Shown: positions 1-64,000 of the stretch, in pieces
Position numbering within the stretch: position 1 is the first letter of the stretch
Layout: each line of letters starts with the position of its first letter
NCBI GenBank assembly: GCA_030386875.1
Contig: CM059560.1
Span: 43,008,757-43,072,756 of the forward strand
DNA length: 64,000 bases
From: Morinoia aosen
Taxonomy: Eukaryota; Arthropoda; Malacostraca; Amphipoda; Talitridae
Reading direction: 5' to 3'
The notes under the pieces: model-generated
What the model was told of the DNA's origin: nothing
Seen by the model: the letters and a program-made list of their open reading frames with translations, nothing else
The model's database searches: none
Made by a program: the position numbers and the translations under genes

Positions 1-2376
1 ACCTTCTGTACTCCTTTGTGCGCTGTAGAGATACCTTCTGTACTCCTTTGTGCGCTGTAGAGATACCTTCTGTACTCCTTTGTGCGCTGTAGAGATACCT
101 TCTGTACTCCTTTGTACGCTGTAGAGATACCTCGTGTACTCCTTTGTGCGCTGTAGAGATACCTTCTGTACTCCTTTGTGCGCTGTAGAGATACCTTCTG
201 TACTCCTTTGTGCGCTGTAGAGATACCTTCTGTACTCCTTTGTACGTTCTAGAGATATTTCCTGTACTCCTTTGTGCGCTGTAGAGATACCTTCTGTACT
301 CCTTTGTGCGCTGTAGAGATATTTCCTGTACTCCTTTGTGCGCTGTAGAAATACCTTCTGTACTCCTTTTTGCGCTGTAGAGATACCTTCTGTGCTCCTT
401 TGTACGCTGTAGAGATACCTCGTGTACTCCTTTGAACGTTCTAGAGATATTTCCTGTACTCCTTTGTGCGCTGTAGAGATACCTTCTGTACTCCTTTGTG
501 CGCTGTAAAGATACCTTCAGTACTCCTTTGTGCGCTGTAGAGATACCTTCTGTACTCCTTTTTACGCTGTAGAGATACCTTCTGTACTCCTTTGTGCGCT
601 GTAGAGATACCTTCTGTACTCCTTTGTACGCTGTAGAGATACCTCGTGTACTCCTTTGTACGTTCTAGAGGTATTTCCTGTACTCCTTTGTGCGCTGAAG
701 AGATACCTTCTGTACTCCTTTGTGCGCTGTAGAGATACCTTCTGTACTCCTTTGTACGCTGTAGAGATACCTTCTGTACTCCTTTGTGCGCCGTAGAGAT
801 ACCTTCTGTACTCCTTTGTACGCTGTAGAGATACCTCGTGTACTCCTGTGTACGTTCTAGAGATATTTCCTGTACTCCTTTGTGCGCTGTAGAGATACCT
901 TCTGTACTCCTTTGTGCGCTGTAGAGATACCTTCTGTACTCCTTTGTGCGCTGTAGAGATACCTTCTGTACTCCTTTGTGCGCTGTAGAGATACCTTCTG
1001 TACTCCTTTGTGCGCTGTAGAGATACCTTCTGTACTCCTTTGTACGCTGTAGAGATACCTCGTGTACTCCTTTGTACGTTCTAGAGATATTTGCTGTACT
1101 CCTTTGTGCGCTGTAGAGATACCTTCTGTACTCCTTTGTGCGCTGTAGAGGTACCTTCTGTACTCCTTTGTGCGCTGTAGAGATACCTTCTGTACTCCTT
1201 TGTACGCTGTAGAGATACCTTCTGTACTCCTTTGTGCGCTGTAGAGATACCTTCTGTACTCCTTTGTACGCTGTAGAGATACCTCGTGTACTCCTTTGTA
1301 CGTTCTAGAGATATTTCCTGTACTCCTTTGTGCGCTGTAGAGATACCTTCTGTACTCCTTTGTGCGCTGTAGAGATACCTTCTGTACTCCTTTGTGCGCT
1401 GTAGAGATACCTTCTGTACACCTTTGTGCGCTGTAGAGATACCTTCTGTACTCCTTTGTGCGCTGTAGAGATACCTTCTGTACTCCTTTGTACGCTGTAG
1501 AGATACCTCGTGTACTCCTTTGTACGTTCTAGAGATATTTCCTGTACTCCTTTGTGCGCTGTAGAGATACCTTCTGTACTCCTTTGTGCGCTGTAGAGAT
1601 ACCTTCTGTACTCCTTTGTGCGCTGTAGAGATACCTTCTGTACTCATTTGTACGCTGTAGAGATACCTTCTGTACTCCTTTGTGCGCTGTAGAGATACCT
1701 TCTGTACTCCTTTGTACGCTGTAGAGACACCTCGTGTACTCCTTTGTACGTTCTAGAGATATTTCCTGTACTCCTTTGTGCGCTGTAGAGATACCTTCTG
1801 TACTCCTTTGTGCGCTGAAGAGATACCTTCTGTACTCCTTTGTGCGCTGTAGAGATACCTTCTGTACTCCTTTGTACGCTGTAGAGATACCTTCTGTACT
1901 CCTTTGTGCGCTGTAGAGATACCTTCTGTACTCCTTTGTACGCTGTAGAGATACCTCGTGTACTCCTTTGTACGTTCTAGAGATATTTCCTGTACTCCTT
2001 TGTGCGCTGTAGAGATACCTTCTGTACTCCTTTGTGCGCTGTAGAGATACCTTCTGTACTCCTTTGTACGTTCTCGAGATATTTACTGTACTCCTTTGTA
2101 CGCTGTAGAGATACCTTCTGTACTCCTTTGTGCGCTGTAGAGATACCTCGTGTACTCCTTTGTACGTTCTAGAGATAATTCCTGTACTCCTTTGTGCGCT
2201 GTAGAGATACCTTCTGTACTCCTTTGTGCGCTGTAGAGATACCTTCTGTACTCTTTTGTACGCTGTAGAGATACCTCGTGTACTCCTTTGTGCGCTGTAG
2301 AGATACCTTCTGTACTCCTTTGTGCGCTGTAGAGATACCTTCTGTACTCCTTTGTGCACTGTAGAGATACCTTCTG
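1..2376. repeat. Left-edge mixed higher-order units
   Basis: The window opens inside an alpha-rich 10-monomer type unit (gamma, three alpha, delta ending at 263) followed by alpha 264-295 and epsilon 296-327. Further right, 7-monomer and longer units alternate up to the start of the 2.4-kb block. Only point variants are seen, with no interruption and no gene. Confidence 0.85.
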
Positions 2377-3700
2377 TACTCCTTTGTACGTTCTAGAGAT
2401 ATTTCCTGTACTCCTTGTGCGCTGATGAGATACCTTCTGTACTCCTTTGTGCGCTGTAGAGATATTTCCTGTACTCCTTTGTGCTCTGTAGAGATACCTT
2501 CTGTACTCCTTTGTGCGCTGTAGAGATACCTTCTGTACTCCTTAGTACGCTGTAGAGATACCTTCTGTACTCCTTTGTGCGCTGTAGAGATACCTTCTGT
2601 ACTCCTATGTACGCTGTAGAGATACCTCGTGTACTCCTTTGTACGTTCTAGAGATATTTCCTGTACTCCTTTGTGCGCTGTAGAGATACCTTCTGTACTC
2701 CTTTGTACGCTGTAGAGATACCTCGTGTACTCCTTTGTACGTTCTAGAGATATTTCCTGTACTCCTTTGTGCGCTGTAGAGATACCTTCTGTACTCCTTT
2801 GTGCGCTGTAGAGATACCTTCTGTACTCCTTTGTGTGCTGTAGAGATACCTTCTGTACTCCTTTTTACGCTGTAGAGATACCTTCTGTACTCCTTTGTGC
2901 GCTGTAGAGATACCTTCTGCACTCCTTTGTACGCTGTAGAGATACCTCGTGTACTCCTTTGTACGTTCTAGAGATATTTCCTGTACTCCTTTGTGCGCTG
3001 TAGAGATACCTTCTGTACTCCTTTGTGCGCTGTAGAGATACCTTCTGTACTCCTTTGTACGCTGTAGAGATACCTCGTGTACTCCTTTGTACGTTCTAGA
3101 GATATTTCCTGTACTCCTTTGTGCGCTGTAGAGATACCTTCTGTACTCCTTTGTGCGCTGTAGAGATACCTTCTGTACTCCTTTGTGCACTGTAGAGATA
3201 CCTTCTGTACTCCTTTGTGCGCTGTAGAGATACCTTCTGTACTCCTTTGTGCGCTGTAGAGATACCTTCTGTACTCCTTTGTACGCTGTAGAGATACCTC
3301 GTGTACTCCTTTGTGCGCTGTAGAAATACCTTCTGTACTCCTTTGTGTGCTGTAGAGATACCTTCTGTACTCCTTTGTGCGCTGTAGAGATACCTTCTGT
3401 ACCCCTTTGTACGTTCTAGAGATATTTCCTGTACTCCTTTGTGCGCTGTAGAGATACCTTCTGTACTTCTTTGTGCGCTGTAGAGATACCTTCTGTACTC
3501 CTTTGTGCGCTGTAGGGATACCTTCTGTACTCCTTTGTGCGCTGTAGAGATACCTTCTGTACTCCTTTGTGCGCTGTAGAGATACCTTCTGTACTCCTTT
3601 TACGCTGTAGAGATACCTCGTGTACTCCTTTGTGCGCTGTAGAGATACCTTCTGCACTCCTTTGTGCGCTGTAGAGATACCTTATGTACTCCTTTGTACG
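2377..3700. repeat. ~2.4-kb block duplication, copy 1
   Basis: Shares rare variants with 4839-6067: the 31-bp monomer ccttgtgcgctgatgag at 2411 and 4873 (offset 2462), the tccttag variant at 2540 and 5002 (2462), gtacttc at 3463 and 5829 (2366), and the tctgcac variant at 3651 and 6018 (2367). The change of offset from 2462 to 2366 is three monomers, showing a unit gained or lost within one copy. Edges are approximate. Confidence 0.8.
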
Positions 3701-4838
3701 TTCTAGAGATATTTCCTGTACTCCTTTGTGCGCTGTAGAGATACCTTCTGTACTCCTTTGTGCGCTGTAGAGATACCTTCTGTACTCCTTTGTGCGCTGT
3801 AGAGATACCTTCTGTACTCCTTTGTACGCTGTAGAGATACCTTCTGTACTCCTTTGTGCGCTGTAGAGATACCTTCTGTACTCCTTTGTACGCTGTAGAG
3901 ATACCTCGTGTATTCCTTTGTACGTTCTAGAGATATTTCCTGTACTCCTGTGTGCGCTGTAGAGATACCTTCTGTACTCCTTTGTGCGCTGTAGAGATAC
4001 CTTCTGTACTCCTTTGTGCGCTGTAGAGATACCTTCTGTACTCCTTTGTACGCTGTAAAGATACCTTCTGTACTCCTTTGTGCGCTGTAGAGATACCTTC
4101 TGTACTCCTTTGTACGCTGTAGAGATACCTCGTGTACTCCTTTGTACGTTCTAGAGATATTTCCTGTACTCCTTTGTGCGCTGTAGAGATACCTTCTGTA
4201 CTCCTTTGTGCGCTGTAGAGATACCTTCTGTACTCCATTGTGCGCGGTAGAGATACCTTCTGTACTCCTTTGTACGTTCTAGAGATATTCCCTGTACTCC
4301 TTTGTGCGCTGTAGAGATACCTTCTGTACTCCTTTGTGCGCTGTAGAGATACCTTCTGTACTCCTTTGTGCACTGTAGAGATACCTTCTGTACTCCTTTG
4401 TGCGCTGTAGAGATACCTTCTGTACTCCTTTGTACGCTGTAGAGATACCTCGTGTACTCCTTTGTGCGTTGTAGAGATACCTTCTGTACTCCTTTGTGCG
4501 CTGTAGAGATACCTTCTGTACTCCTTTGTACGTTCTAGAGATATTTCCTGTACTCCTTTGTGCGCTGTAGAGATACCTTCTGTACTCCTTTGTGCGCTGT
4601 AGAGATACCTTCTGTACTCCTTTGTGCGCTGTAGGGATACCTTCTGTACTCCTTTGTGCGCTGTAGAGATACCTTCTGTACTCCTTTGTGCGCTGTAGAG
4701 ATACCTTCTGTACTCCTTTGTACGCTGTAGAGATACCTCGTGTACTCCTTTGTGCGCTGTAGAGATACCTTCTGTACTCCTTTGTGCGCTGTAGATATAC
4801 CTTCTGTACTCCTTTGTGCGCTGTAGAGATACCTTCTG

Positions 4839-6067
4839 TACTCCTTTGTACGTTCTAGAGATATTTCCTGTACTCCTTGTGCGCTGATGAGATACCTTCT
4901 GTACTCCTTTGTGCGCTGTAGAGATATTTCCTGTACTCCTTTGAGCGCTGTAGAGATACCTTCTGTACTCCTTTGTGCGCTGTAGAGATACCTTCTGTAC
5001 TCCTTAGAACGCTGTAGAGATACCTTCTGTACTCCTTTGTGCGCTGTAGAGATACCTTCTGTACTCCTTTGTACGCTGTAGAGATACCTTGTGTACTCCT
5101 TCGTACGTTCTAGAGATATTTCCTGTACTCCTTTGTGCGCTGTAGTGATACCTTCTGTACTCCTTTGTACGCTGTAGAGATACCTCGTGTACTCCTTTGT
5201 ACGTTCTAGAGATATTTCCTGTACTCCTTTGTGCGCTGTAGAGATACCTTCTGTACTCCTTTGTGCGCTGTAGAGATACCTTCTGCACTCCTTTGTGCGC
5301 TGTAGAGATACCTTCTGTACTCCTTTGCACGCTGTAGAGATACCTTCTGTACTCCTTTGTGCGCTGTAGAGATACCTTCTGTACTCCTTTGTACGCTGTA
5401 GAGATACCTCGTGTACTCCTATGTACGTTCTAGAGATATTTCCTGTACTCCTTTGTGCGCTGTAGAGATACCTTCTGTACTCCTTTGTGCGCTGTAGAGA
5501 TACCTTCTGTACTCCTTTGTGCGCTGTAGAGATACCTTCTGTACTCCTTTGTGCGCTGTAGAGATACCTTCTGTACTCCTTTGTGCGCTGTAGAGATACC
5601 TTCTGTACTCCTTTGTACGCTGTAGAGATACCTCGTGTACTCCTTTGTGCGCTGTAGAGCTACCTTCTGTACTCCCTTGTGCGCTGTAGAGATACCTTCT
5701 GTACTCCTTTGTGCGCTGTAGAGATACCTTCTGTACTCCTTTGTGCGCTGTAGAGATACCTTCTGTACTCCTTTGTACGTTCTAGAGATATTTCCTGTAC
5801 TCCTTTGTGCGCTGTAGAGATACCTTCTGTACTTCTTTGTGCGCTGTAGAGATACCTTCTGTACTCCTTTGTGCGCTGTAGGGATACCTTCTGTACTCCT
5901 TTGTGCGCTGTAGAGATACCTTCTGTACTCCTTTGTGCGCTGTAGAGATACCTTCTGTACTCTTTTGTACGCTGTGGAGATACCTCGTGTACTCCTTTGT
6001 GCGCTGTAGAGATACCTTCTGCACCCCTTTGTGCGCTGTAGAGATACCTTCTGTACTCCTTTGTACG
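4839..6067. repeat. ~2.4-kb block duplication, copy 2
   Basis: Partner of 2377-3700, matched by the rare variants listed there. This copy is 96 bases shorter over the shared span and has its own point changes (for example ttgagcgctg near 4942). Confidence 0.8.
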
Positions 6068-21950: not shown

Positions 21951-24511
21951 TAGTCCTTTGTGCGCTGTAGCGATACCTTCTGTACTCATTTGTGCGCTGT
22001 AGAGATACCTTCTGTACTCCTTTGTGCGCTGTAGAGATACCTTCTGTACTCCTTTGTACGCTGTATAGATACCTCGTGTACTCATTTGTGCACTGTAGAG
22101 ATACCTTCTGTACTCCTTTGTGCGCTGTAGAGATACCTTCTGTACTCCTTTGTACGTTCTAGAGATATTTCCTGTACTCCTTTGTGCGCTGTAGAGATAC
22201 CTTCTGTACTCCTTTGTGCGCTATAGAGATACCTTCTGTACTCCTTTGTGCGCTGTAGAGATACCTTCTGTACTCCTTTGTACGCTGTAGAGATACCTCG
22301 TGTACTCCTTTGTACGTTCTAGAGATATTTCCTGTACTCCTTTGTGCGCTGTAGAGATACCTTCTGTACCCCTTTGTGCGCTGTAGAGATACCTTCTGTA
22401 CTCGTTCGTGCGCTGTAGAGATACCTTCTGTACTCCTTTGTACGCTGTAGAGATACCTTCTGTACTCCTTTGTGCGCTGTAGAGATACCTTCTGTACTCC
22501 TTTGTACGCTGTAGAGATACCTCGTGTACTCCTTTGTACGTTCTAGAGATATTTCCTGTACTCCTTTGTGCGCTGTAGAGATACCTTCTGTACTCCTTTG
22601 TGCGCTGTAGAGATACCTTCTGTACTCCTTTGTGCGCTGTAGAGATACATTCCGTACTCCTTTGTACGCTGTAGAGATACCTTCTGTACTCCTTTGTGCG
22701 CTGTAGAGATACCTTCTGTACTCCTTTGTACGCTGTAGAGATACCTCGTGTACTCCTTTTTTACGTTCTAGACATATTTACTGTACTCCTTTGTGCGCTG
22801 TAGAGATACCTTCTGTACTCCTTTGTGCGCTGTAGAGATACCTTCTGTACTCCTTTGTGCGCTGTAGAGATACCTTCTGTACTCCTTTGTACGCTGTAGA
22901 GATGCCTTCTGTACTCCTTTGTGCGCTGTAGAGATACCTTCTGTACTCCTTTGTACGCTGTAGAGATACCTCGTGTACTCCATTGTACGTTCTAGAGATA
23001 TTTCCTGTACTCCTTTGTGCGCTGTAGAGATACCTTCTGTACTCCTTTGTGCGCTGTAGAGATACCTTCTGTACTCCTTTGTGCGCTGTAGAGATACCTT
23101 CTGTACTCCTTTGTGCGCTGTAGAGATACCTTCTGTACTCCTTTGTGCGCTGTGGAGATACCTTCTGAACTCCTTTGTACGCTGTAGAGATACCTCGTGT
23201 ACTCCTTTGTACGTTCTAGAGATATTTCCTGTACTCCTTTGTGCGCTGTAGAGATACCTTCTGTACTCCTTTGTGCGCTGTAGAGATACCTTCTGTACTT
23301 CTTTGTGCGCTGTAAAGATACCTTCTGTACTCCTTTGTACGCTGTAGAGATACCTTCTGTACTCCTTTGTGCGCTGTAGAGATACCTTCTGTACTCCTTT
23401 GAACGCTGTAGAGATACCTCGTGTACTCCTTTGTACGTTCTAGAGATATTTCCTGTACTCCTTTGTGCGCTGTAGAGATACCTTCTGTACTCCTTTGTGC
23501 GCTGTAGAGATACCTTCTGTACTCCTTTGTGCGCTGTAGAGATACCTTCTGTACTCCTTTGTACGCTGTAGAGATACCTTCTGTACTCCTTTGTGCGCTG
23601 TAGAGATACCTTCTGTACTCCTTTGTACGCTGTAGAGATACCTCGTGTACTCCTTTGTACGTTCTAGAGATATTTCCTGTACTCCTTTGTGCGCTGTAGA
23701 GATACCTTCTGTACTCCTTTGTGCGCTGTAGAGATACCTTCTGTACTCCTTTGTACGTTCTAGAGATATTTCCTGTACTCCTTTGTACGCTGTAGAGATA
23801 CCTTCTGTACTCCTTTGTGCGCTGTAGAGATACCTTCTGTACTCCTTTGTACGCTGTAGAGATACCTCGTGTACTCCTTTGTGCGCTGTAGAGATACCTT
23901 CTGTACTCCTTTGTACGCTGTAGAGATACCTCGTGTACTCCTTTGTACGTTCTAGAGATATTTCCTGTACTCCTTTGTGCGCTGTAGAGATACCTTCTGT
24001 ACTCCTTTGTGCGCTGTAGAGATACCTTCTGTACTCCTTTGTGCGCTGTAGAGATACCTTCTGTACTCCTTTGTGCGCTGTAGAGATACCTTCTGTACTC
24101 CTTTGTACGCTGTAGAGATACCTCGTGTACTCCTTTGTACGTTCTAGAGATATTTCCTGTACTCCTTTGTGCGCTGTAGAGATACCTTCTGTACTCCTTT
24201 GTGCGCTGTAGAGATACCCTCTGTACTCCTTTGTGCGCTGTAGAGATACCTTCTGTACTCCTTTGTGCGCTGTAGAGATACCTTCTGTACTCCTTTGTAC
24301 GCTGTAGAGATACCTTCTGTACTCCTTTGTGCGCTGTAGAGATACCTTCTGTACTCCTTTGTGCGCTGTAGAGATACCTTCTGTACTCCTTTGTGCGCTG
24401 TAGAGATACCTTCTGTACTCCTTTGTACGTTCTAGAGATATTTCCTGTACTCCTTTGTGCGCTGTAGAGATACCTTCTGTACTCCTTTGTGCGCTGTAGA
24501 GATACCTTCTG
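21951..24511. repeat. ~2.5-kb block, copy 1 (2561 bp)
   Basis: Bounded here by the rare tagtcc variant (A3 then G) at 21951 and 24512. Carries the 33-bp delta with cttttttacg at 22756 and a gatgcc variant at 22901. It is the most diverged of the three full copies, with private changes near 22222 (ctatag), 22367 (tacccc) and 22403 (gttcgtg). Confidence 0.85.
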
Positions 24512-26976
24512 TAGTCCTTTGTGCGCTGTAGAGATACCTTCTGTACTCATTTGTGCGCTGTAGAGATACCTTCTGTACTCCTTTGTGCGCTGTAGAGATA
24601 CCTTCTGCACTCCTTTGTACGCTGTATAGATACCTCGTGTACTCCTTTGTGCGCTGTAGAGATACCTTCTGTACTCCTTTGTGCGCTGTAGAGATACCTT
24701 CTGTACTCCTTTGTACGTTCTAGAGATATTTCCTGTACTCCTTTGTGCGCTGTAGAGATACCTTCTGTACTCCTTTGTGCGCTGTAGAGATACCTTCTGT
24801 ACTCCTTTGTGCGCTGTAGAGATACCTTCTGTACTCCTTTGTACGTTCTAGAGTTATTTCCTAAACTCCTTTGTGCGCTGTAGAGATACCTTCTGTACTC
24901 CTTTGTACGCTGTAGAGATACCTTCTGTACTCCTTTGTGCGCTGTAGAGATACCTTCTGTACTTCTTTGTACGCTGTAGAGATACCTCGTGTACTCCTTT
25001 GTACGTTCTAGAGATATTTCCTGTACTCCTTTGTGCGCTGTAGAGATACCTTCTGTACTCCTTGGTGCGCTGTAGAGATACCTTCTGTACTCCTTTGTGC
25101 GCTGTAGAGATACCTTCCGTACTCCTTTGTACGCTGTAGAGATACCTTCTGTACTCCTTTGTGCGCTGTAGAGATACCTTCTGTACTCCTTTGTACGCTG
25201 TAGAGATACCTCGTGTACTCCTTTTTTACGTTCTAGACATATTTACTGTACTCCTTTGTGCGCTGTAGAGATACCTTCTGTACTCCTTTGTGCGCTGTAG
25301 AGATACCTTCTGTACTCCTTTGTGCGCTGTAGAGATACCTTCTGTACTCCTTTGTACGCTGTAGAGATGCCTTCTGTACTCCTTTGTGCGCTGTAGAGAT
25401 ACCTTCTGTACTCCTTTGTACGCTGTAGAGATACCTCGTGTACTCCATTGTACGTTCTAGAGATATTTCCTGTACTCCTTTGTGCGCTGTAGAGATACCT
25501 TCTGTACTCCTTTGTGCGCTGTAGAGATACCTTCTGTACTCCTTTGTGCGCTGTAGAGATACCTTCTGTACTCCTTTGTGCGCTGTAGAGATACCTTCTG
25601 TACTCCTTTGTGCGCTGTGGAGATACCTTCTGAACTCCTTTGTACGCTGTAGAGATACCTCGTGTACTCCTTTGTACGTTCTAGAGATATTTCCTGTACT
25701 CCTTTGTGCGCTGTAGAGATACCTTCTGTACTCCTTTGTGCGCTGTAGAGATACCTTCTGTACTTCTTTGTGCGCTGTAAAGATACCTTCTGTACTCCTT
25801 TGTACGCTGTAGAGATACCTTCTGTACTCCTTTGTGCGCTGTAGAGATACCTTCTGTACTCCTTTGAACGCTGTAGAGATACCTCGTGTACTCCTTTGTA
25901 CGTTCTAGAGATATTTCCTGTACTCCTTTGTGCGCTGTAGAGATACCTTCTGTACTCCTTTGTGCGCTGTAGAGATACCTTCTGTACTCCTTTGTGCGCT
26001 GTAGAGATACCTTCTGTACTCCTTTGTACGCTGTAGAGATACCTTCTGTACTCCTTTGTGCGCTGTAGAGATACCTTCTGTACTCCTTTGTACGCTGTAG
26101 AGATACCTCGTGTACTCCTTTGTACGTTCTAGAGATATTTCCTGTACTCCTTTGTGCGCTGTAGAGATACCTTCTGTACTCCTTTGTGCGCTGTAGAGAT
26201 ACCTTCTGTACTCCTTTGTACGTTCTAGAGATATTTCCTGTACTCCTTTGTACGCTGTAGAGATACCTTCTGTACTCCTTTGTGCGCTGTAGAGATACCT
26301 TCTGTACTCCTTTGTACGCTGTAGAGATACCTCGTGTACTCCTTTGTGCGCTGTAGAGATACCTTCTGTACTCCTTTGTACGCTGTAGAGATACCTCGTG
26401 TACTCCTTTGTACGTTCTAGAGATATTTCCTGTACTCCTTTGTGCGCTGTAGAGATACCTTCTGTACTCCTTTGTGCGCTGTAGAGATACCTTCTGTACT
26501 CCTTTGTGCGCTGTAGAGATACCTTCTGTACTCCTTTGTGCGCTGTAGAGATACCTTCTGTACTCCTTTGTACGCTGTAGAGATACCTCGTGTACTCCTT
26601 TGTACGTTCTAGAGATATTTCCTGTACTCCTTTGTGCGCTGTAGAGATACCTTCTGTACTCCTTTGTGCGCTGTAGAGATACCCTCTGTACTCCTTTGTG
26701 CGCTGTAGAGATACCTTCTGTACTCCTTTGTGCGCTGTAGAGATACCTTCTGTACTCCTTTGTACGCTGTAGAGATACCTTCTGTACTCCTTTGTGCGCT
26801 GTAGAGATACCTTCTGTACTCCTTTGTGCGCTGTAGAGATACCTTCTGTACTCCTTTGTGCGCTGTAGAGATACCTTCTGTACTCCTTTGTACGTTCTAG
26901 AGATATTTCCTGTACTCCTTTGTGCGCTGTAGAGATACCTTCTGTACTCCTTTGTGCGCTGTAGAGATACCTTCTG
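24512..26976. repeat. ~2.5-kb block, copy 2 (2465 bp)
   Basis: Begins at the tagtcc marker and repeats the cttttttacg (25221), gatgcc (25366) and agttatttcctaaac (~24853) markers. The next copy carries the same agttatttcctaaac at 27318. An open minus-strand frame of 464 residues in this copy is residue-for-residue the same as one in copy 1, showing very recent homogenisation. Confidence 0.88.
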
Positions 26977-29280
26977 TAGTCCTTTGTGCGCTGTAGAGAT
27001 ACCTTCTGTACTCATTTGTGCGCTGTAGAGATACCTTCTGTACTCCTTTGTGCGCTGTAGAGATACCTTCTGCACTCCTTTGTACGCTGTATAGATACCT
27101 CGTGTACTCCTTTGTGCGCTGTAGAGATACCTTCTGTACTCCTTTGTGCGCTGTAGAGATACCTTCTGTACTCCTTTGTACGTTCTAGAGATATTTCCTG
27201 TACTCCTTTGTGCGCTGTAGAGATACCTTCTGTACTCCTTTGTGCGCTGTAGAGATACCTTCTGTACTCCTTTGTGCGCTGTAGAGATACCTTCTGTACT
27301 CCTTTGTACGTTCTAGAGTTATTTCCTAAACTCCTTTGTGCGCTGTAGAGATACCTTCTGTACTCCTTTGTACGCTGTAGAGATACCTTCTGTACTCCTT
27401 TGTGCGCTGTAGAGATACCTTCTGTACTTCTTTGTACGCTGTAGAGATACCTCGTGTACTCCTTTGTACGTTCTAGAGATATTTCCTGTACTCCTTTGTG
27501 CGCTGTAGAGATACCTTCTGTACTCCATTGTGCGCTGTAGAGATACCTTCTGTACTCCTTTGTGCGCTGTAGAGATACCTTCCGTACTCCTTTGTACGCT
27601 GTAGAGATACCTTCTGTACTCCTTTGTGCGCTGTAGAGATACCTTCTGTACTCCTTTGTACGCTGTAGAGATGCCTTCTGTACTCCTTTGTGCGCTGTAG
27701 AGATACCTTCTGTACTCCTTTGTACGCTGTAGAGATACCTCGTGTACTCCATTGTACGTTCTAGAGATATTTCCTGTTCTCCTTTGTGCGCTGTAGAGAT
27801 ACCTTCTGTACTCCTTTGTGCGCTGTAGAGATACCTTCTGTACTCCTTTGTGCGCTGTAGAGATACCTTCTGTACTCCTTTGTGCGCTGTAGAGATACCT
27901 TCTGTACTCCTTTGTGCGCTGTGGAGATACCTTCTGAACTCCTTTGTACGCTGTAGAGATACCTCGTGTACTCCTTTGTACGTTCTAGAGATATTTCCTG
28001 TACTCCTTTGTGCGCTGTAGAGATACCTTCTGTACTCCTTTGTGCGCTGTAGAGATACCTTCTGTACTTCTTTGTGCGCTGTAAAGATACCTTCTGTACT
28101 CCTTTGTACGCTGTAGAGATACCTTCTGTACTCCTTTGTGCGCTGTAGAGATACCTTCTGTACTCCTTTGAACGCTGTAGAGATACCTCGTGTACTCCTT
28201 TGTACGTTCTAGAGATATTTCCTGTACTCCTTTGTGCGCTGTAGAGATACCTTCTGTACTCCTTTGTGCGCTGTAGAGATACCTTCTGTACTCCTTTGTG
28301 CGCTGTAGAGATACCTTCTGTACTCCTTTGTACGCTGTAGAGATACCTTCTGTACTCCTTTGTGCGCTGCAGAGATACCTTCTGTACTCCTTTGTACGCT
28401 GTAGAGATACCTCGTGTACTCCTTTGTACGTTCTAGAGATATTTCCTGTACTCCTTTGTGCGCTGTAGAGATACCTTCTGTACTCCTTTGTGCGCTGTAG
28501 AGATACCTTCTGTACTCCTTTGTACGTTCTAGAGATATTTCCTGTACTCCTTTGTACGCTGTAGAGATACCTTCTGTACTCCTTTGTGCGCTGTAGAGAT
28601 ACCTTCTGTACTCCTTTGTACGCTGTAGAGATACCTCGTGTACTCCTTTGTGCGCTGTAGAGATACCTTCTGTACTCCTTTGTACGCTGTAGAGATACCT
28701 CGTGTACTCCTTTGTACGTTCTAGAGATATTTCCTGTACTCCTTTGTGCGCTGTAGAGATACCTTCTGTACTCCTTTGTGCGCTGTAGAGATACCTTCTG
28801 TACTCCTTTGTGCGCTGTAGAGATACCTTCTGTACTCCTTTGTGCGCTGTAGAGATACCTTCTGGACTCCTTTGTACGCTGTAGAGATACCTCGTGTACT
28901 CCTTTGTACGTTCTAGAGATATTTCCTGTACTCCTTTGTGCGCTGTAGAGATACCTTCTGTACTCCTTTGTGCGCTGTAGAGATACCCTCTGTACTCCTT
29001 TGTGCGCTGTAGAGATACCTTCTGTACTCCTTTGTGCGCTGTAGAGATACCTTCTGTACTCCTTTGTACGCTGTAGAGATACCTTCTGTACTCCTTTGTG
29101 CGCTGTAGAGATACCTTCTGTACTCCTTTGTGCGCTGTAGAGATACCTTCTGTACTCCTTTGTGCGCTGTAGAGATACCTTCTGTACTCCTTTGTACGTT
29201 CTAGAGATATTTCCTGTACTCCTTTGTGCGCTGTAGAGATACCTTCTGTACTCCTTTGTGCGCTGTAGAGATACCTTCTG
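26977..29280. repeat. ~2.5-kb block, copy 3 (2304 bp)
   Basis: Exactly 72 monomer lengths. Differs from copy 2 by loss of 161 bases around 27.6 kb, five monomers plus the one-base insertion carried by the cttttttacg delta. A fourth, partial copy starts at 29281 and reaches at least the cttttttacc delta at 29990. Its agttatttcc marker at 29622 is followed by gtactcc rather than the aaactcc of the previous copies. Confidence 0.87.
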
Positions 29281-31370
29281 TAGTCCTTTGTGCGCTGTAG
29301 AGATACCTTCTGTACTCATTTGTGCGCTGTAGAGATACCTTCTGTACTCCTTTGTGCGCTGTAGAGATACCTTCTGCACTCCTTTGTACGCTGTATAGAT
29401 ACCTCGTGTACTCCTTTGTGCGCTGTAGAGATACCTTCTGTACTCCTTTGTGCGCTGTAGAGATACCTTCTGTACTCCTTTGTACGTTCTAGAGATATTT
29501 CCTGTACTCCTTTGTGCGCTGTAGAGATACCTTCTGTACTCCTTTGTGCGCTGTAGAGATACCTTCTGTACTCCTTTGTGCGCTGTAGAGATACCTTCTG
29601 TACTCCTTTGTACGTTCTAGAGTTATTTCCTGTACTCCTTTGTGCGCTGTAGAGATACCTTCTGTACTCCTTTGTACGCTGTAGAGATACCTTCTGTACT
29701 CCTTTGTGCGCTGTAGAGATACCTTCTGTACTTCTTTGTACGCTGTAGAGATACCTCGTGTACTCCTTTGTACGTTCTAGAGATATTTCCTGTACTCCTT
29801 TGTGCGCTGTAGAGATACCTTCTGTACTCCATTGTGCGCTGTAGAGATACCTTCTGTACTCCTTTGTGCGCTGTAGAGATACCTTCCGTACTCCTTTGTA
29901 CGCTGTAGAGATACCTTCTGTACTCCTCTGTGCGCTGTAGAGATACCTTCTGTACTCCTTTGTACGCTGTAGAGATACCTCGTGTACTCCTTTTTTACCT
30001 TCTAGACATATTTACTGTACTCCTTTGTGCGCTGTAGAGATACCATCTGTACTCCTTTGTGCGCTGTAGAGATACCTTCTGTACTCCTTTGTGCGCTGTA
30101 GAGATACCTTCTGTACTCCTTTGTACGCTGTAGAGATACCTTCTGTACTCCTTTGTGCGCCGTAGAGATACCTTCTGTACTCCTTTGTACGCTGTAGAGA
30201 TACCTCGTGTACTCCTTTGTACGTTCTAGAGATATTTCCTGTACTCCTTTGTGCGCTCTAGAGATACCTTCTGTACTCCTTTGTGCGCTGTAGAGATACC
30301 TTCTGTACTCCTTTGTGCGCTGTAGAGATACCTTCTGTACTCCTTTGTGCGCTGTAGAGATACCTTCTGAACTCCTTTGTGCGCTGTAGAGATACCTCGT
30401 GTACTCCTTTGTACGTTCTAGAGATATTTCCTGTACTCCTTTGTGCGCTGTAGAGATACCTTCTGTACTCCTTTGTGCGCTGTAGAGATACCCTCTGTAC
30501 TCCTTTGTGCGCTGTAGAGATACCTTCTGTACTCCTTTGTACGCTGTAGAGATACCTCGTGTACTCCTTTGTACGTTCTAGAGATATTTCCTGTACTCCT
30601 TTGTGCGCTGTAGAGATACCTTCTGTACTCCTTTGTGCGCTGTAGAGATACCTTCTGTACTCCTTTGTGCGCTGTAGAGATACCTTATGTACTTCTTTGT
30701 GCGCTGTAGAGATACCTTCTGTACTCCTTTGTGCGCTGTAGAGATACCTTCTGTACTCCTTTGTACGCTGTAGAGATACCTCGTGTACTCCTTTGTGCGC
30801 TGTAGAGATACCTTCTGTACTCCTTTGTGCGCTGTAGAGATACCTTCTAAACTCCTTTGTGCGCTGTAGAGATACCTTCTGTACTCCTTTGTACGTTCTA
30901 GAGATATTTCCTGTACTCCTTTGTGCGCTGTAGAGATACATTCTGTACTCCTTTGTGCGCTGTAGAGATATTTCCTGTACTCCTTTGTGCGCTGTAGAGA
31001 TACCTTCTGTACTCCTTTGTGCGCTGTAGTGATACCTTCTGTACTCCTTTGTACGCTGTAGAGATACCTCGTGTACTCCTTTGTACGTTCTAGAGATATT
31101 TCCTGTACTCCTTTGTGCGCTGTAGAGATACCTTCTGTACTCCTTTGTGCGCTGTAGAGATACCTTCTGTACTCCTCTGTGCGCTGTAGAGATACCTTCT
31201 GTACTCCTTTGTACGCTGTAGAGATACCTTCTGTACTCCTTTGTGCGCTGTAGAGATACCTTCTGTACTCCTTTGTACGCTGTAGAGATACCTCGTGTAC
31301 TCCTTCGTACGTTTTAGAGATATTTCCTGTACTCCTTTTTGCGCTGTAGAGATACCTTCTGTACTCCTTT
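29281..31370. repeat. Partial fourth 2.5-kb copy and transition zone
   Basis: The left part continues the 21.95-29.28 kb block (markers at 29281, 29622 and 29990). From about 30.2 kb the array changes to alpha-rich 9/10-monomer units with a delta-alpha-epsilon trio near 30.9-31.0 kb. No gene or unique sequence marks the junction; the change lies wholly within monomers. Confidence 0.75.
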
Positions 31371-53044: not shown

Positions 53045-53048
53045 TTCT

Positions 53049-53080
53049 GTACTCCTTTGTACGCTGTAGAGATACCTTCT
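53049..53080. repeat. Beta monomer
   Basis: Differs from alpha by G13A, giving tttgtacgctg, which creates a second GTAC ten bases after the first. In the 7-monomer unit it sits fourth, one alpha ahead of gamma. In the units I parsed by eye it is largely confined to that slot. Confidence 0.9.
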
Positions 53081-53112
53081 GTACTCCTTTGTGCGCTGTA
53101 GAGATACCTTCT

Positions 53113-53144
53113 GTACTCCTTTGTACGCTGTAGAGATACCTCGT
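53113..53144. repeat. Gamma monomer
   Basis: Carries G13A as in beta plus a changed tail, acctcgt instead of accttct (T30C, C31G), which adds a second CpG. It either directly precedes delta (4-, 6- and 7-monomer units) or is separated from it by two or three alpha copies (9- and 10-monomer units). Confidence 0.92.
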
Positions 53145-53176
53145 GTACTCCTTTGTACGTTCTAGAGATATTTCCT
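53145..53176. repeat. Delta monomer, unit-closing class
   Basis: The most diverged common class: G13A, C16T, G18C, C27T, C28T and T30C, read as tacgttctagagatatttcct. It has a TCTAGA palindrome absent from the other classes. Its reverse complement holds the only minus-strand stop (TAG) in the monomer family, so most minus-strand open frames terminate here with the peptide ending EYRKYL. One delta closes each higher-order unit, which makes it the best ruler of the array. Confidence 0.93.
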
Positions 53177-54473: not shown

Positions 54474-55250
54474 CTAGAGATATTTCCTGTACTCCTTTGT
54501 GCGCTGTAGAGATACCTTCTGTACTCCTTTGTGCGCTGTAGAGATACCTTTTGTACTCCTTTGTGCGCTGTAGAGATACCTTCTGTACTCCTTTGTACGC
54601 TGTAGAGATACCTTCTGTACTCCTTTGTGCGCTGTAGAGATACCTTCTGTACTCCTTTGTACGCTGTAGAGATACCTCGTGTACTCCTTTGTACGTTCTA
54701 GAGATATTTCCTGTACTTCTTTGTGCACTGTAGATATACCTTCTGTACTCCTTTGTGCGCTGTAGAGATACCTTCTGTGCTCCTTTGTGCGCTGTAGAGA
54801 TACCTTCTGTACTCCTTTGTGCGCTGTAGAGATACCTTCTGTACTCCTTTGTGCGCTGTAGAGATACCTTCTGTACTCCTTTGTACGCTGTAGAGATACC
54901 TCGTGTACTTCTTTGTACGTTCTAGAGATATTTCCTGTACTCCTTTGTGCGCTGTAGAGATACCTTCTGGACTCCTTTGTGCGCTGTAGAGATACCTTCT
55001 GTACTCCTTTGTACGCTGTAGAGATACCTCGTGTACTCCTTTGTGCGCTGTAGAGATACCTTCTGTACTCCTTTGTACGTTCTAGAGATATTTCCTGTAC
55101 TCCTTTGTGCGCTGTAGAGATACCTTCTGTACTCCTTTGTGCGCTGTAGAGATATTTCCTGTCCTCCTTTGTGCGCTGTAGAGATACCTTCTGTACTCCT
55201 TTGTGCGCTGTAGAGAAACCTTCTGTACTTCTTTGTACGCTGTAGAGATA
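54474..55250. repeat. Segment copied ~8.7 kb downstream
   Basis: The unit with ttttgtactcc and a closing gtacttctttgtgcactg near 54715 recurs at 63146-63400 at offset 8672 (271 monomers); the minus-strand frames of 84 residues there are identical. Further right, gtcctcc at 55161 matches 63897 at offset 8736, two monomers more. Confidence 0.82.
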
Positions 55251-55886
55251 CCTCGTGTACTCCTTTGTACGTTCTAGAGATATTTCCTGTACTCCTTTGT
55301 GCGCTGTAGAGATACCTTCGGTACTCCTTTGTGCGCTGTAGAGATACCTTCTGTACTCCTTTGTGCGCTGTAGAGATACCTTCTGTACTCCTTCGTACGC
55401 TGTAGAGATACCTTCTGTACTCCTTTGTGCGCTGTAGAGATACCTTCTGTACTCCTTTGTACGCTGTAGAGATACCTCGTGTACTTGTGTGTACGTTCTA
55501 GAGATATTTCCTGTACTCCTTTGTGCGCTGTAGAGATACCTTCTGTACTCCTTTGTGCGCTGTAGAGATACCTTCTGTACTCCTTTGTGCGCTGTAGAGA
55601 TACCTTCTGTACTCCTTTGAACGCTGTAGAGATACCTTCTGTACTCCTTTGTGCGCTGTAGAGATACCTTCTGTACTCCTTTGTACGCTGTAGAGATACC
55701 TCGTGTACTCCTTTGTACGTTCTAGAGATATTTCCTGTACTCCTTTGTGCGCTGTAGAGATACCTTCTGTACTCCTTTGTGCGCTGTAGAGATACCTTTT
55801 GTACTCCTTTGTACGCTGTAGAGATACCTCGTGTACTCCTTTGTACGTTCTAGAGATATTTCCTGTACTCCTTTGTGCGCTGTAGA
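54987..55886. repeat. Segment duplicated 5886 bp, copy 2
   Basis: Partner of 49101-50000 by the gtcctcc, ttcggtactcc and ttttgtactcc variants. A gtacttgtgtg variant near 55485 is private to this copy. Confidence 0.83.
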
Positions 55887-58633: not shown

Positions 58634-60233
58634 CTAGAGATATTTCCTGTACTCCTTTGTGCGCTGTAGAGATACCTTCTGTACTCCTTTGTGCGCTGTA
58701 GAGATACCTTCTGTACTCCTTTGTGCGCTGTAGAGATACCTCGTGTACTCCTTTGTACGTTCTAGAGATATTTCCTGTACTCCTTTGTGCGCTGTAGAGA
58801 TACCTTCTGTACTCCTTTGTGCGCTGTAGAGATACCTTCTGTACTCCTTTGTACGCTGTAGAGATACCTCGTGTACTCCTTTGTACGTTCTAGAGATATT
58901 TCCTGTACTCCTTTGTGCGCTGTAGAGATACCTTCTGTACTCCTTTGTGCGCTGTAGAGATACCTTCTGTACTCCTTTGTGCGCTGTAGAGATACCTTCT
59001 GTACTCCTTTGTGCGCTGTAGAGATACCTTCTGTACTCCTTTGTGCGCTGTAGAGATACCTTCTGTACTCCTTTGTACGCTGTAGAGATACCTCGTGTAC
59101 TCCTTTGTGCGCTGTAGAGATACCTTCTGTTCTCCTTTGTGCGCTGTAGAGATACCTTCTTCACTCCTTTGCACGTTCTAGAGATATTTCCTGTACTCCT
59201 TTGTGCGCTGTAGAGATACATTCTGTACTCCTTTGTGCGCTGTAGAGATACCTTCTGTACTCCTTTGTGCGCTGTAGAGATACCTTCTGTACTCCTTTGT
59301 ACGCTGAAGAGATACCTCGTGTACTCCTTTGTACGTTCTAGAGATATTTCCTGTACTCCTTTGTGCGCTGTAGAGATACCTTCTGTACTCCTTTGTGCGC
59401 TGTAGAGATACCTTCTGTACTCCTTTGTGCGCTGTAGAGACACCTTCTGTACTCCTTTGTACGCTGTAGAGATACCTTCTGTACTCCTTTGTGCGCTGTA
59501 GAAAAACCTTCTGTACTCCTTTGTGCGCTGTAGAGATACCTTCTGTACTCCTTTGTACGCTGTAGAGATAACTCGTGTACTCCTCTGTACGTTCTAGAGA
59601 TATTTCCTGTACTCCTTTGTGCGCTGTAGAGATACCTTCTGTACTCCTTTGTGCGCTGTAGAGATACCTTCTGTACTCCTTTGTGCGCTGTAGAGATACC
59701 TTCTGTACTCCTTTGTACGCTGTAGAGATACCTTCTGTACTCCTTTGTGCGCTGTAGAGATACCTTCTGTACTCCTTTGTACGTTCTAGAGATACCTCGT
59801 GTACTCCTTTGTACGTTCTAGAGATATTTCCTGTACTCCTTCGTTCGCTGTAGAGATACCTTCTGTACTCCTTTGTGCGCTGTAGAGATACCTTCTGTAC
59901 TCCTTTGTGCGCTGTAGAGATACCTTCTGTACTCCTTTGTACGCTGTAGAGATACCTTCTGTACTCCTTTGTGCGCTGTAGAGATACCTTCTGTACTCCT
60001 TTGTACGCTGTAGAGATATTTCCTGTACTTCTTTGTGCGCTGTAGAGATACCTTCTGTACTCCTTTTTGCGTTGTAGAGATACCTTCTGTGCTCCTTTGT
60101 GCGCTGTAGAGATACCTTCTGTACTCCTTTGTGCGCTGTAGAGATACCTTCTGTACTCCTTTGTGCGCTGTAGAGATACCTTCTGTACTCCTTTGTACGC
60201 TGTAGAGATACCTCGTGTACTTCGTTGTACGTT
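58634..60233. repeat. 1600-bp tandem duplication, copy 1
   Basis: Exactly 50 monomers. Markers shared with copy 2 at offset 1600 are ttcttcactcctttgcacg (~59158, 60758), gaaaaacc (59501, 61101), ccttcgttcgctg (~59839, 61439), the delta/gamma hybrid (59779, 61379) and ttcgttgtacg (60221, 61821). Confidence 0.9.
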
Positions 60234-61833
60234 CTAGAGATATTTCCTGTACTCCTTTGTGCGCTGTAGAGATACCTTCTGTACTCCTTTGTGCGCTGTA
60301 GAGATGCCTTCTGTACTCCTTTTTACGCTGTAGAGATACCTCGTGTACTCCTTTGTACGTTCTAGAGATATTTCCTGTACTCCTTTGTGCGCTGTAGAGA
60401 TACCTTCTGTACTCCTTTGTGCGCTGTAGAGATACCTTCTGTACTCCTTTGTACGCTGTAGAGATACCTCGTGTACTCCTTTGTACGTTCTAGAGATATT
60501 TCCTGTACTCCTTTGTGCGCTGTAGAGATACCTTCTGTACTCCTTTGTGCGCTGTAGAGATACCTTCTGTACTCCTTTGTGCGCTGTAGAGATACCTTCT
60601 GTACTCCTTTGTGCGCTGTAGAGATACCTTCTGTACTCCTTTGTGCGCTGTAGAGATACCTTCTGTACTCCTTTGTACGCTGTAGAGATACCTCGTGTAC
60701 TCCTTTGTGCGCTGTAGAGATACCTTCTGTTCTCCTTTGTGCGCTGTAGAGATACCTTCTTCACTCCTTTGCACGTTCTAGAGATATTTCCTGTACTCCT
60801 TTGTGCGCTGTAGAGATACATTCTGTACTCCTTTGTGCGCTGTAGAGATACCTTCTGTACTCCTTTGTGCGCTGTAGAGATACCTTCTGTACTCCTTTGT
60901 ACGCTGAAGAGATACCTCGTGTACTCCTTTGTACGTTCTAGAGATATTTCCTGTACTCCTTTGTGCGCTGTAGAGATACCTTCTGTACTCCTTTGTGCGC
61001 TGTAGAGATACCTTCTGTACTCCTTTGTGCGCTGTAGAGACACCTTCTGTACTCCTTTGTACGCTGTAGAGATACCTTCTGTACTCCTTTGTGCGCTGTA
61101 GAAAAACCTTCTGTACTCCTTTGTGCGATGTAGAGATACCTTCTGTACTCCTTTGTACGCTGTAGAGATAACTCGTGTACTCCTCTGTACGTTCTAGAGA
61201 TATTTCCTGTACTCCTTTGTGCGCTGTAGAGATACCTTCTGTACTCCTTTGTGCGCTGTAGAGATACCTTCTGTACTCCTTTGTGCGCTGTAGAGATACC
61301 TTCTGTACTCCTTTGTACGCTGTAGAGATACCTTCTGTACTCCTTTGTGCGCTGTAGAGATACCTTCTGTACTCCTTTGTACGTTCTAGAGATACCTCGT
61401 GTACTCCTTTGTACGTTCTAGAGATATTTCCTGTACTCCTTCGTTCGCTGTAGAGATACCTTCTGTACTCCTTTGTGCGCTGTAGAGATACCTTCTGTAC
61501 TCCTTTGTGCGCTGTAGAGATACCTTCTGTACTCCTTTGTACGCTGTAGAGATACCTTCTGTACTCCTTTGTGCGCTGTAGAGATACCTTCTGTACTCCT
61601 TTGTACGCTGTAGAGATATTTCCTGTACTTCTTTGTGCGCTGTAGAGATACCTTCTGTACTCCTTTTTGCGTTGTAGAGATACCTTCTGTGCTCCTTTGT
61701 GCGCTGTAGAGATACCTTCTGTACTCCTTTGTGCGCTGTAGAGATACCTTCTGTACTCCTTTGTGCGCTGTAGAGATACCTTCTGTACTCCTTTGTACGC
61801 TGTAGAGATACCTCGTGTACTTCGTTGTACGTT
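60234..61833. repeat. 1600-bp tandem duplication, copy 2
   Basis: Nearly identical to copy 1. The differences I saw are few: gagatgcc at ~60303, ttttacgctg at ~60329 against ttgtgcgctg, and gcgatg at ~61126 against gcgctg. It is followed by the beginning of a third copy, which departs near 61.92 kb. Confidence 0.9.
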
Positions 61834-61899
61834 CTAGAGATATTTCCTGTACTCCTTTGTGCGCTGTAGAGATACCTTCTGTACTCCTTTGTGCGCTGT

Positions 61900-63050
61900 A
61901 GAGATGCCTTCTGTACTCCTTTGTACGCTGTAGAGATACCTCGTGTACTCCTTTGTGCGCTGTAGAGATACCTTCTGTACTCCTTTGTGCGCTGTAGAGA
62001 TACCTTCTGTACTCCTTTGTGTGCTGTAGAGATACCTTCTGTACTCCTTTGTGCGCTGTAGAGATACCTTCTGTACTCCTTTGTACGTTCTAGAGATATT
62101 TCCTGTACTCCTTTGTGCGCTGTAGAGAAACCTTCTGTACTCCTTTGTGCGCTGTAGAGATATTTCCTGTACTCCTTTGTGCGCTGTAGAGATACCTTCT
62201 GTACTCCTTTGTGCGCTGTAGAGATACCTTCTGTACTCCTTTGTACGCTGTAGAGATACCTCGTGTACTCCTTTGTACGTTCTAGAGATATTTCCTGTAC
62301 TCCTTTGTGCGCTGTAGAGATACCTTCTGTACTCCTTTGTGCGCTTTAGAGATACCTTGTGTACTCCTTTGTGCGCTGTAGAGATACCTTCTGTACTCCT
62401 TTGTACGCTGTAGAGATACCTTCTGTACTCCTTTGTGCGCTGTAGAGATACCTTCTGTACTCCTTTGTACGCTGTAGAGATACCTCGTGTACTCCTTTGT
62501 ACGTTCTAGAGATATTTCCTGTACTCCTTTATGCGCTGTAGAGATACCATCTGTACTCCTTTGTGCGCTGTAGAGATACCTTCTGTACTCCTTTGTGCGC
62601 TGTAGAGATACCTTCTGTACTCCTTTGTACGCTGTAGAGATACCTTCTGTACTCCTTTGTGCGCTGTAGAGATACCTTCTGTACTCTTTTGTACGCTGTA
62701 GAGATACCTCGTGTACTCCTTTGTACGTTCTAGAGATATTTCCTGTACTCCTTTGTGCGCTGTAGAGATACCTTCTGTACTCCTTTGTGCGCTGTAGAGA
62801 TACCTTCTGTACTCTTTTGTACGCTGTAGAGATACCTCGTGTACTCCTTTGTACGTTCTAGAGATATTTCCTGTACTCCTTTGTGCGTTGTAGAGATACC
62901 TTCTGTACTCCTTTGTGCGCTGTAGAGATACCTTCTGTACTCCTTTGTGCGCTGTAGAGATACCTTCTGTACTCCTTTGTGCGCTGTAGAGATACCTTCT
63001 GTACTCCTTTGTGCACTGTAGAGATACCTTCTGTACTCCTTTGTACGCTG
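61900..63050. repeat. Downstream copy of the 45.5-46.7 kb segment
   Basis: Matches 45.55-46.70 kb at offset 16,350 through the gctttag, gtgcgttg and gtgcactg variants and the epsilon trio. At its left edge the offset is 16,382, a one-monomer difference. Confidence 0.83.
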
Positions 63051-63145
63051 TAGAGATACCTTCTGTACTCCTTTGTGCGCTGTAGAGATACCTTCTGTAC
63101 TCCTTTGTACGCTGTAGAGATACCTCGTGTACTCCTTTGTACGTT

Positions 63146-64000
63146 CTAGAGATATTTCCTGTACTCCTTTGTGCGCTGTAGAGATACCTTCTGTACTCCT
63201 TTGTGCGCTGTAGAGATACCTTTTGTACTCCTTTGTGCGCTGTAGAGATACCTTCTGTACTCCTTTGTACGCTGTAGAGATACCTTCTGTACTCCTTTGT
63301 GCGCTGTAGAGATACCTTCTGTACTCCTTTGTACGCTGTAGAGATACCTCGTGTACTCCTTTGTACGTTCTAGAGATATTTCCTGTACTTCTTTGTGCAC
63401 TGTAGAGATACCTTCTGTACTCCTTTGTGCGCTGTAGAGATACCTTCTGTGCTCCTTTGTGCGCTGTAGAGATACCTTCTGTACTCCTTTGTGCGCTGTA
63501 GAGATACCTTCTGTACTCCTTTGTGCGCTGTAGAGATACCTTCTGTACTCCTTTGTACGCTGTAGAGAGACCTCGTGTACTTCTTTGTACGTTCTAGAGA
63601 TATTTCCTGTACTCCTTTGTGCGCTGTAGAGATACCTTCTGTACTCCTTTGTGCGCTGTAGAGATACCTTCTGTACTCCTTTGTACGCTGTAGAGATACC
63701 TCGTGTACTCCTTTGTGCGCTGTAGAGATACCTTCTGTACTCCTTTGTGCGCTGTAGAGATACCTTCTGTACTCCTTTGTGCGCTGTAGAGATACCTTCT
63801 GTACTCCTTTGTACGTTCTAGAGATATTTCCTGTACTCCTTTGTGCGCTGTAGAGATACCTTCTGTACTCCTTTGTGCGCTGTAGAGATATTTCCTGTCC
63901 TCCTTTGTGCGCTGTAGAGATACCTTCTGTACTCCTTTGTGCGCTGTAGAGATACCTTCTGTACACCTTTGTACGCTGTAGAGATACCTCGTGTACTCCT
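63146..64000. repeat. Downstream copy of the 54.5-55.2 kb segment, running off the window
   Basis: Begins as a match to 54474 onward (offset 8672) and continues to the gtcctcc epsilon trio at 63897. The array is still in phase at base 64000, where a gamma tail is followed by gtactcct, so the array continues beyond the window. Confidence 0.82.

What the first reader, a model, noticed from the sequence alone, without database searches (positions are those of the whole stretch)
1..64000. Five-letter monomer alphabet with a strict order
When monomers are started at gtactcc, variants that look scattered collapse into linked classes: alpha, beta (G13A), gamma (G13A, T30C, C31G), delta (G13A, C16T, G18C, C27T, C28T, T30C) and epsilon (alpha front, delta tail). 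In the units I parsed the order behaves like a grammar: delta closes each unit, gamma comes directly before delta or two to three alphas before it, and beta sits one alpha before gamma. Seen directly in the units listed; that it holds array-wide is extrapolation from partial parsing.
Basis: partly seen in the sequence, partly recalled or inferred. Interest (0 to 1): 0.7.

Follow-up and report, generated by a model that had tools for sequence, protein, structure and literature searches.

The report
Layered 32-bp satellite with nested repeats
The whole window is one long stretch of a 32-letter DNA repeat whose few variants recur in a preferred order because blocks of several repeats were copied together, a pattern known from human centromeres, seen here in an invertebrate genome and flanked by a more diverged version of the same repeat facing the other way.

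Summary
The 64 kb parses into 2000 full 32-bp monomers (two partial end pieces dropped). All five classes exist and their order departs hugely from chance: neighbour mutual information 0.379 bits against a maximum of 0.015 in 1000 shuffles. Exceptions are 6% of gammas, 15% of betas. Unit lengths peak at 7 (116 of 299), then 6, 4 and 9; 10 is no peak.

This is a higher-order-repeat (HOR) satellite: neighbouring monomers were amplified together, and larger blocks again (exact 2412-bp repeat at offset 2465, private insertion copied along).

The gamma-delta pair holds genome-wide: exact gamma-delta outnumbers alpha-delta 5 to 1, where composition predicts 0.19 to 1. The beta rule is local.

On this chromosome a 3.5-3.7 Mb core, holding the window, lies between stretches of a more diverged 32-bp array of opposite orientation. 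The flanks match each other (96-98%) better than the core (90-92%) and already hold a gamma-(delta-like) pair. This fits a young expansion inside an old array, as in primate alpha satellite. Centromere function is plausible, untested. Host: an invertebrate, perhaps an amphipod (recalled resemblance).

The parts
1..64000 (+). 32-bp satellite array, 2000 full monomers, part of the plus-strand core on C5 (42.93 to between 46.4 and 46.6 Mb)
456..679 (+). example of the commonest unit by class, alpha-alpha-alpha-beta-alpha-gamma-delta (7 monomers, 224 bp); 84 of 299 units are of this class string
   Evidence: single monomers of it carry private changes
616..679 (+). example of a gamma-delta doublet (gamma 616-647, delta 648-679)
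296..327 (+). example of epsilon: alpha front, delta tail (in-register recombinant form)
22650..25061 (+). first copy of the longest exact repeat (2412 bp); holds a private 1-base insertion near 22757
25115..27526 (+). second copy of the 2412-bp exact repeat, offset 2465 (77 monomers + 1 base); holds the same insertion near 25222

Best explanation
This is an irregular higher-order-repeat satellite. Shown: a 32-bp monomer exists as a few linked haplotypes; runs of several monomers recur as blocks, and blocks of about 75 monomers were copied whole. Inferred: the copying came by unequal exchange or break-induced replication between misaligned copies, kept in the 32-bp register, so that neighbours travel together and a class order spreads, while gains and losses of single monomers and in-register recombination (epsilon) give the exceptions. 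Shown: on C5 the array is layered, a homogeneous core (about 1.1% private differences per site) in plus orientation between diverged stretches (2.3-5.1%) in minus orientation that resemble each other more than the core and already hold gamma followed by a delta-front monomer. Inferred: a flank-like segment in inverted orientation founded the core; alpha (30C to T) and delta (27C and 28C to T) are derived, gamma was kept. Inferred, at about even odds: the core belongs to the centromere or pericentromere of this chromosome.
For: Linked classes and non-random order. Memory beyond the nearest neighbour: beta-alpha-gamma 110 against 28.3 expected from a first-order chain. Units come in a non-random order (mutual information 2.30, at most 1.61 in 1000 shuffles); longest repeated run of units 18, at most 7 in 100 shuffles; longest repeated class string 79 monomers, about 17-20 in 20 shuffles or 20 Markov strings. 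Exact 2412-bp repeat at offset 2465 carrying the same private insertion, which recurs once more near 29,991; private deletions recur twice at offset 2655. Gamma-delta to alpha-delta 4.99 genome-wide against 0.194 from class counts; delta-delta only 969. Strand change at C5:42,927,560, layers and their divergence, gamma followed by a delta-front monomer in 28 of 38 in a 10-kb flank piece.
Against: Units vary from 2 to 25 monomers and 48 kinds occur, so it is not a regular HOR. The flank is itself ordered (mutual information 0.42, shuffle maximum 0.13) and has a longer exact repeat in 10 kb (794 bp) than four core pieces (331-667 bp), so it is not simply an old decayed monomeric layer. The outer probes rest on 33 monomers a side. 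C21 and C22 loci differ at 1.4-1.6% per site, between C5 core and flank. Complete or capped lists place the family on few placed contigs, which does not favour a centromere satellite of all chromosomes, though much of it is on C27, which seems unplaced.
Confidence: 0.9

Rival explanations
1. The order is a functional code: the gamma-delta doublet is a protein-binding or phasing element that must recur, and selection keeps the alphabet and its order.
For: The doublet is shared by all 11 loci parsed and appears already in the flank layer as gamma plus delta-front. Per-site rates of private change agree between core and flank (Spearman 0.75, 23 sites, distinct monomers), as constraint could cause.
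Against: Spacing between doublets is loose (units of 2 to 25 monomers; one run of 25 alphas at C21:54.4). Descent from one founder plus copying explains the sharing. Higher rates at G/C than A/T sites suggest mutation bias. The recalled CENP-B box is absent.
Confidence: 0.08
2. The order, the layers or the strand switches are assembly artefacts of a collapsed or mis-joined satellite.
For: Satellites of this kind are hard to assemble; much of the family lies on C27, which also holds COX1 genes that look bacterial and so seems a joined set of unplaced pieces.
Against: The same doublet order is found on C5, C21, C22 and C27, gamma-delta is in excess among more than 100,000 exact pairs, and copied blocks carry private changes. 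The class order inside a few hundred bases is within read length of any long-read method (general knowledge; the method used here is unknown).
Confidence: 0.05
3. The classes come from a recurrent mutation process (such as cytosine deamination) acting on one monomer, not from copying of haplotypes.
For: Relative to alpha, three of the six delta changes are C to T and one is G to A.
Against: The changes are strongly linked (r2 0.78-0.90 among sites 16, 18, 27 and 28) and the classes keep a neighbour order; G18C and T30C do not fit; the flank suggests that 30C is the ancestral state (476 of 484 flank monomers).
Confidence: 0.02

Closest known systems
Human alpha satellite HOR arrays with flanking monomeric layers
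   Same: Neighbouring monomers amplified as blocks; a homogeneous core flanked by more diverged repeats of the same family (passages of PMC4107277, and PMC5615363)
   Different: Monomer 32 bp instead of about 171 bp; irregular nested units; core and flank in opposite orientation; flank itself ordered; recalled CENP-B box absent; centromere function unknown; no sequence relation was sought
HOR satellites of beetles and other insects
   Same: HORs in invertebrates; the review also speaks of complex HORs with inversely oriented monomers (passage of PMC5615363)
   Different: Regular ones are said there to be usually dimeric; here the commonest unit has 7 monomers and whole megabase-scale stretches, not single monomers, are turned round
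Satellites of crayfish and other crustaceans
   Same: Abundant satellites in a crustacean, if the host is one (passages of PMC13130569)
   Different: The word search of that paper found no 'higher-order' and no '32 bp'

Membership tests
Higher-order-repeat satellite DNA | Head-to-tail tandem array of one monomer | tested here: met
   TRF 32 bp, 2000.5 copies, whole window
Higher-order-repeat satellite DNA | Several distinct neighbouring monomers amplified together in a fixed order | tested here: met
   order preferred, not absolute
Higher-order-repeat satellite DNA | Copies of a monomer in different units are more alike than different monomers of one unit | tested here: met
   1438 of 2000 monomers are identical to a class consensus and 1972 are within 2 changes, while alpha and delta differ at 6 of 32 sites
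Higher-order-repeat satellite DNA | One regular unit length | tested here: not met
   7 is commonest (116 of 299) and class match peaks at lag 7 (0.634, expected 0.446), but units run from 2 to 25. Regular human HORs have one length, beetle and mammal 'complex HORs' need not
Alpha satellite | About 171-bp monomer | tested here: not met
   32 bp
Alpha satellite | CENP-B box in part of the monomers (motif recalled) | tested here: not met
   0 matches on both strands of the window
Functional centromere | CENH3 nucleosomes and kinetochore on the array | not testable with these tools
   No chromatin or cytogenetic data
Functional centromere | Present at one place on every chromosome | tested here: inconclusive
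   One complete list (79 of 79 hits of a sparse variant) shows C5, C21, C22 and C27 only; other lists are capped; C27 seems unplaced and may belong to any chromosome

The most novel reading that the evidence does not exclude
The inverted core is the active centromere of this chromosome: a young HOR expansion that turned round and split an older array, evolving layer by layer as primate centromeres do but with a 32-bp monomer in an invertebrate, and with a gamma-delta doublet kept from the old layer because a centromere protein binds it.
Probability: 0.1. Interest if true: 0.65.

Novelty: new member of a known kind. Interest (0 to 1): 0.34.

Why it matters
If the core is the centromere, this would be a well-resolved example, far from primates, of layered centromere turnover with HORs made from a very short monomer. 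It could test whether HORs and layered growth are general results of exchange in tandem DNA or need primate-type factors such as CENP-B. As plain satellite it is still a good data set for how block amplification makes order, and for strand reversal in satellite arrays.

Tried and rejected
Phage records: no match for the first 8 kb of the window; plasmids and E. coli were not searched. Rfam: none at gathering score in the first 20 kb; the rest was not searched. Paper search for four satellite strings: 2 papers, each with one short string, on unrelated subjects by title. Papers with 'higher-order repeat', 'satellite DNA' and 'crustacean': 2, off the subject by title; '32-bp' with HOR and centromere: 1, on primates; amphipod with satellite DNA and tandem repeat: 3; Gammarus with satellite and centromer: 7; only listings of these were seen, except passages of PMC13130569. 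A 96-base DNA query gave 0 matches in the own genome, because common words are skipped; patterns worked. Recalled CENP-B box: absent. Exact dyads with arms of 6-9 bases and gaps of 0-14 in two joined alphas: none. One 224-base stretch folds as single-stranded DNA at z -2.97; not followed up, since shuffling a tandem repeat makes that z hard to read. The host was sought through COX1 and mitochondrial open frames. Reading AGR as Ser and ATA as Met (code 5) fits conserved COX1 sites as I recall them; resemblance to gammarid amphipods is recalled, and passages of PMC5249044 and PMC10956265 neither proved nor excluded it. Listings of pattern hits are not complete in order: one search lists nothing between C5:42.128 and 43.192 Mb, although the pooled flank pieces from C5:42.80-42.93 and 47.0 Mb hold 92 exact copies of that pattern. 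So absence from other contigs is not claimed from capped lists.
Full report
WHAT THE WINDOW IS. The window is C5:43,008,757-43,072,756 (+) of a 1.99-Gb eukaryote assembly with 29 contigs. It is one 32-bp tandem array from end to end. The host is an invertebrate: a COX1 gene on C28 reads sensibly with the invertebrate mitochondrial code (conserved sites compared from recall). Open frames, named by eye, give the order ND2-ND3-COX1-COX2-ATP6-COX3, then ND5-ND4-ND4L on the other strand, with ND6 and ND1 further on. A gammarid amphipod is a recalled lead only.

THE CLASSES. I aligned the window to a circular 32-site profile. Of 2002 pieces the two partial end pieces were dropped, leaving 2000 monomers; the window needs only 20 deleted and 5 inserted bases. 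Sites 13, 16, 18, 27, 28, 30 and 31 carry the common variation; no other site departs from its main letter in more than 3%. They are linked: front by tail puts 1866 of 2000 monomers in the five expected cells. Epsilon (18 in that table) fits an in-register exchange between alpha and delta; the reciprocal, delta front with alpha tail, was seen 0 times there, and delta front with gamma tail 3 times.

THE ORDER. Neighbour mutual information is 0.379 bits, against at most 0.015 in 1000 shuffles. Delta never follows delta; 285 of 299 deltas are followed by alpha, 12 by beta, 2 by gamma. Gamma is followed directly by delta in 218 cases and reaches it after two or three alphas in 49; 18 of 285 do otherwise, counting one at the window end. 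Beta is followed by alpha-gamma in 110 of 130. A first-order Markov chain gives 28.3 such cases (maximum 42 in 500 simulations), so there is memory beyond the nearest neighbour. Of 299 units 116 have 7 monomers, 41 have 6, 32 have 4, 29 have 9, 23 have 5, 18 have 3, 15 have 8, 14 have 10. There are 48 kinds of unit; the commonest, alpha3-beta-alpha-gamma-delta, makes up 84 of 299, but only 6 copies are exact over all 224 bases.

WHY THERE IS AN ORDER. Units themselves come in a non-random order (mutual information 2.30 against at most 1.61 in 1000 shuffles), and the longest repeated run of units is 18, against at most 7 in 100 shuffles. The longest exact repeat is 2412 bp, at 22650 and 25115, offset 2465, that is 77 monomers plus one base. 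The extra base is a private insertion present in both copies and once more near 29,991; private deletions also recur, twice, at an offset of 2655. So a block of about 75 monomers was copied whole. The order is the trace of copying, on at least two scales. Whether the copying was unequal exchange or break-induced replication cannot be told from the sequence.

GENOME-WIDE TEST. Exact counts, both strands: alpha 1,011,632, delta 228,123, gamma 196,561, gamma-delta 124,978, alpha-delta 25,046, delta-delta 969, beta-alpha-gamma-delta 9,499. Gamma-delta to alpha-delta is 4.99, against 0.194 from class counts. In the window the same exact counts are alpha 922, gamma 192, delta 205, gamma-delta 96, alpha-delta 39, delta-delta 0, beta-alpha-gamma-delta 33; beta is 103 and epsilon 16. 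If exact alpha is 46% of monomers everywhere, as in the window (38-54% at the other ten core-type loci, probes aside), the family is about 2.2 million monomers or 70 Mb (inference). Eleven loci parsed on C5, C21, C22 and C27, the window included, all have gamma to delta in 67-100% of cases, and neighbour information above the maximum of 200 shuffles each. Beta-alpha-gamma is 110 of 130 in the window, 19 of 21, 15 of 32, 10 of 26 and 17 of 26 at four other C5 loci, 16 of 27 at C21:56.6, 10 of 18 on C22, and 0 of 8 at C21:54.4 and three C27 loci. The complete list of one sparse variant (79 of 79 hits) lies on C5, C21, C22 and C27 only.

LAYERS. At C5:42,927,560 the array changes strand (L041). 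Pieces and 300-500-base probes give: no satellite at 41.9 and 42.05 Mb; a minus-strand diverged array at 42.2, 42.5, 42.8 and 42.9; the plus-strand core at 43.1, 43.5, 44.0, 45.0, 45.5, 46.0, 46.2 and 46.4; a minus-strand array at 46.6; other sequence at 46.8; a minus-strand diverged array at 47.0 and 47.2; none at 47.4, 47.6, 47.8 and 48.0. Private differences per site at 23 non-diagnostic sites, deleted bases counted: window 1.19%, other C5 core pieces 0.95-1.45%, inner left flank 2.27% and 2.79%, outer left probes 5.14% (33 monomers), right probes 2.64% (33 monomers); C21 and C22 loci 1.37-1.56%, C27 loci 0.59-0.95%. Right-flank probes match left-flank pieces at 96-98% (best hits, 297-500 bp) but the window at 90-92%, although the window is the larger target; two core probes match the window at 97-98% and the flank at 89-92%. 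Both flanks are therefore one type, different from the core. In 484 pooled flank monomers 30C is nearly fixed (476), 27T is seen 3 times and 28T 14 times. In the 10-kb flank piece gamma is followed by a delta-front, old-tail monomer in 28 of 38 cases. So the doublet appears to be older than the core, and alpha and delta look derived. Against a simple age order, that flank piece is itself ordered (mutual information 0.42, shuffle maximum 0.13) and has a longer exact repeat (794 bp) than four 10-kb core pieces (331-667 bp), so some copying in it is recent. C21 and C22 also change strand: C21 is plus at 48.65, minus at 49.1-49.2 and 53.4-54.4, and plus from 54.57 Mb (stretches between not read); C22 is minus at 0.4-2.4 and plus at 2.8 Mb.

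FUNCTION. The layering and the mid-contig place (42-47 of 71.7 Mb) suggest a centromere; nothing here tests it. The recalled CENP-B box is absent. A rule that keeps spacing is disfavoured by unit lengths from 2 to 25. Per-site rates of private change agree between core and flank (Spearman 0.75 over 23 sites); mutation bias or constraint could cause that.

COMPARISON. Passages of two reviews describe HORs as adjacent monomers amplified and homogenised together, human HORs flanked by monomeric repeats, and usually dimeric regular HORs in beetles (PMC4107277; PMC5615363). This array is the same kind of thing with a short monomer and irregular, nested units. I found no print record of this satellite in the searches; only open-licence papers are held there, so this is weak.

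VERDICT. It is a new member of a known kind. The inverted, layered C5 array is the more interesting result.

Noticed in passing
window 1-64000 and C5 flank pieces L041, L046, L057, L058: Per-site rates of private change agree between core and flank (Spearman 0.75, 23 sites, distinct monomers): sites 5, 17, 26, 29 and 32 are quiet in both, sites 1, 6, 7, 11 and 12 busy in both. Mutation bias or constraint.
   Followed up: partly
G000:C27:50867206-50926280: Inverted (tail-to-tail) monomer junctions recur every few hundred to few thousand bases here; most of the 50 listed sites (53 in all) lie in this stretch, so an inverted junction was itself amplified.
   Followed up: no
L001-L004, G000:C27 about 55-72 Mb: Several COX1 genes with long open frames and no mitochondrial-code stops; two read by eye look bacterial. 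C27 (75.6 Mb) also holds satellite at 8 of 8 probes from 0.5 to 53 Mb, so it seems a joined set of unplaced pieces, some from bacteria.
   Followed up: partly
L039-L040, G000:C28:1-19999: Mitochondrial genome seemingly in tandem (COX1 at 2209 and 20565, 18,356 bases apart) with repeated open frames of about 76-108 codons between ND1 and ND2 that look like control-region repeats.
   Followed up: no
L005, L006 (G000:C26), G000:C22:9485994 and C11:31957292: Further mitochondrial-type COX1 copies, whole or partial, on large contigs: nuclear copies or misplaced mitochondrial pieces.
   Followed up: no
L066 (G000:C5:46800000-46800299) and L068 (C5:47.4 Mb): Other tandem repeats interrupt or border the right flank: a repeat with 'acaatcctatgcgagaatag' at 46.8 Mb and a short repeat at 47.4 Mb.
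   Followed up: no
L086 (G000:C22:1600000-1600299): A junction from minus-strand satellite into other, itself repeated sequence inside the C22 array.
   Followed up: no
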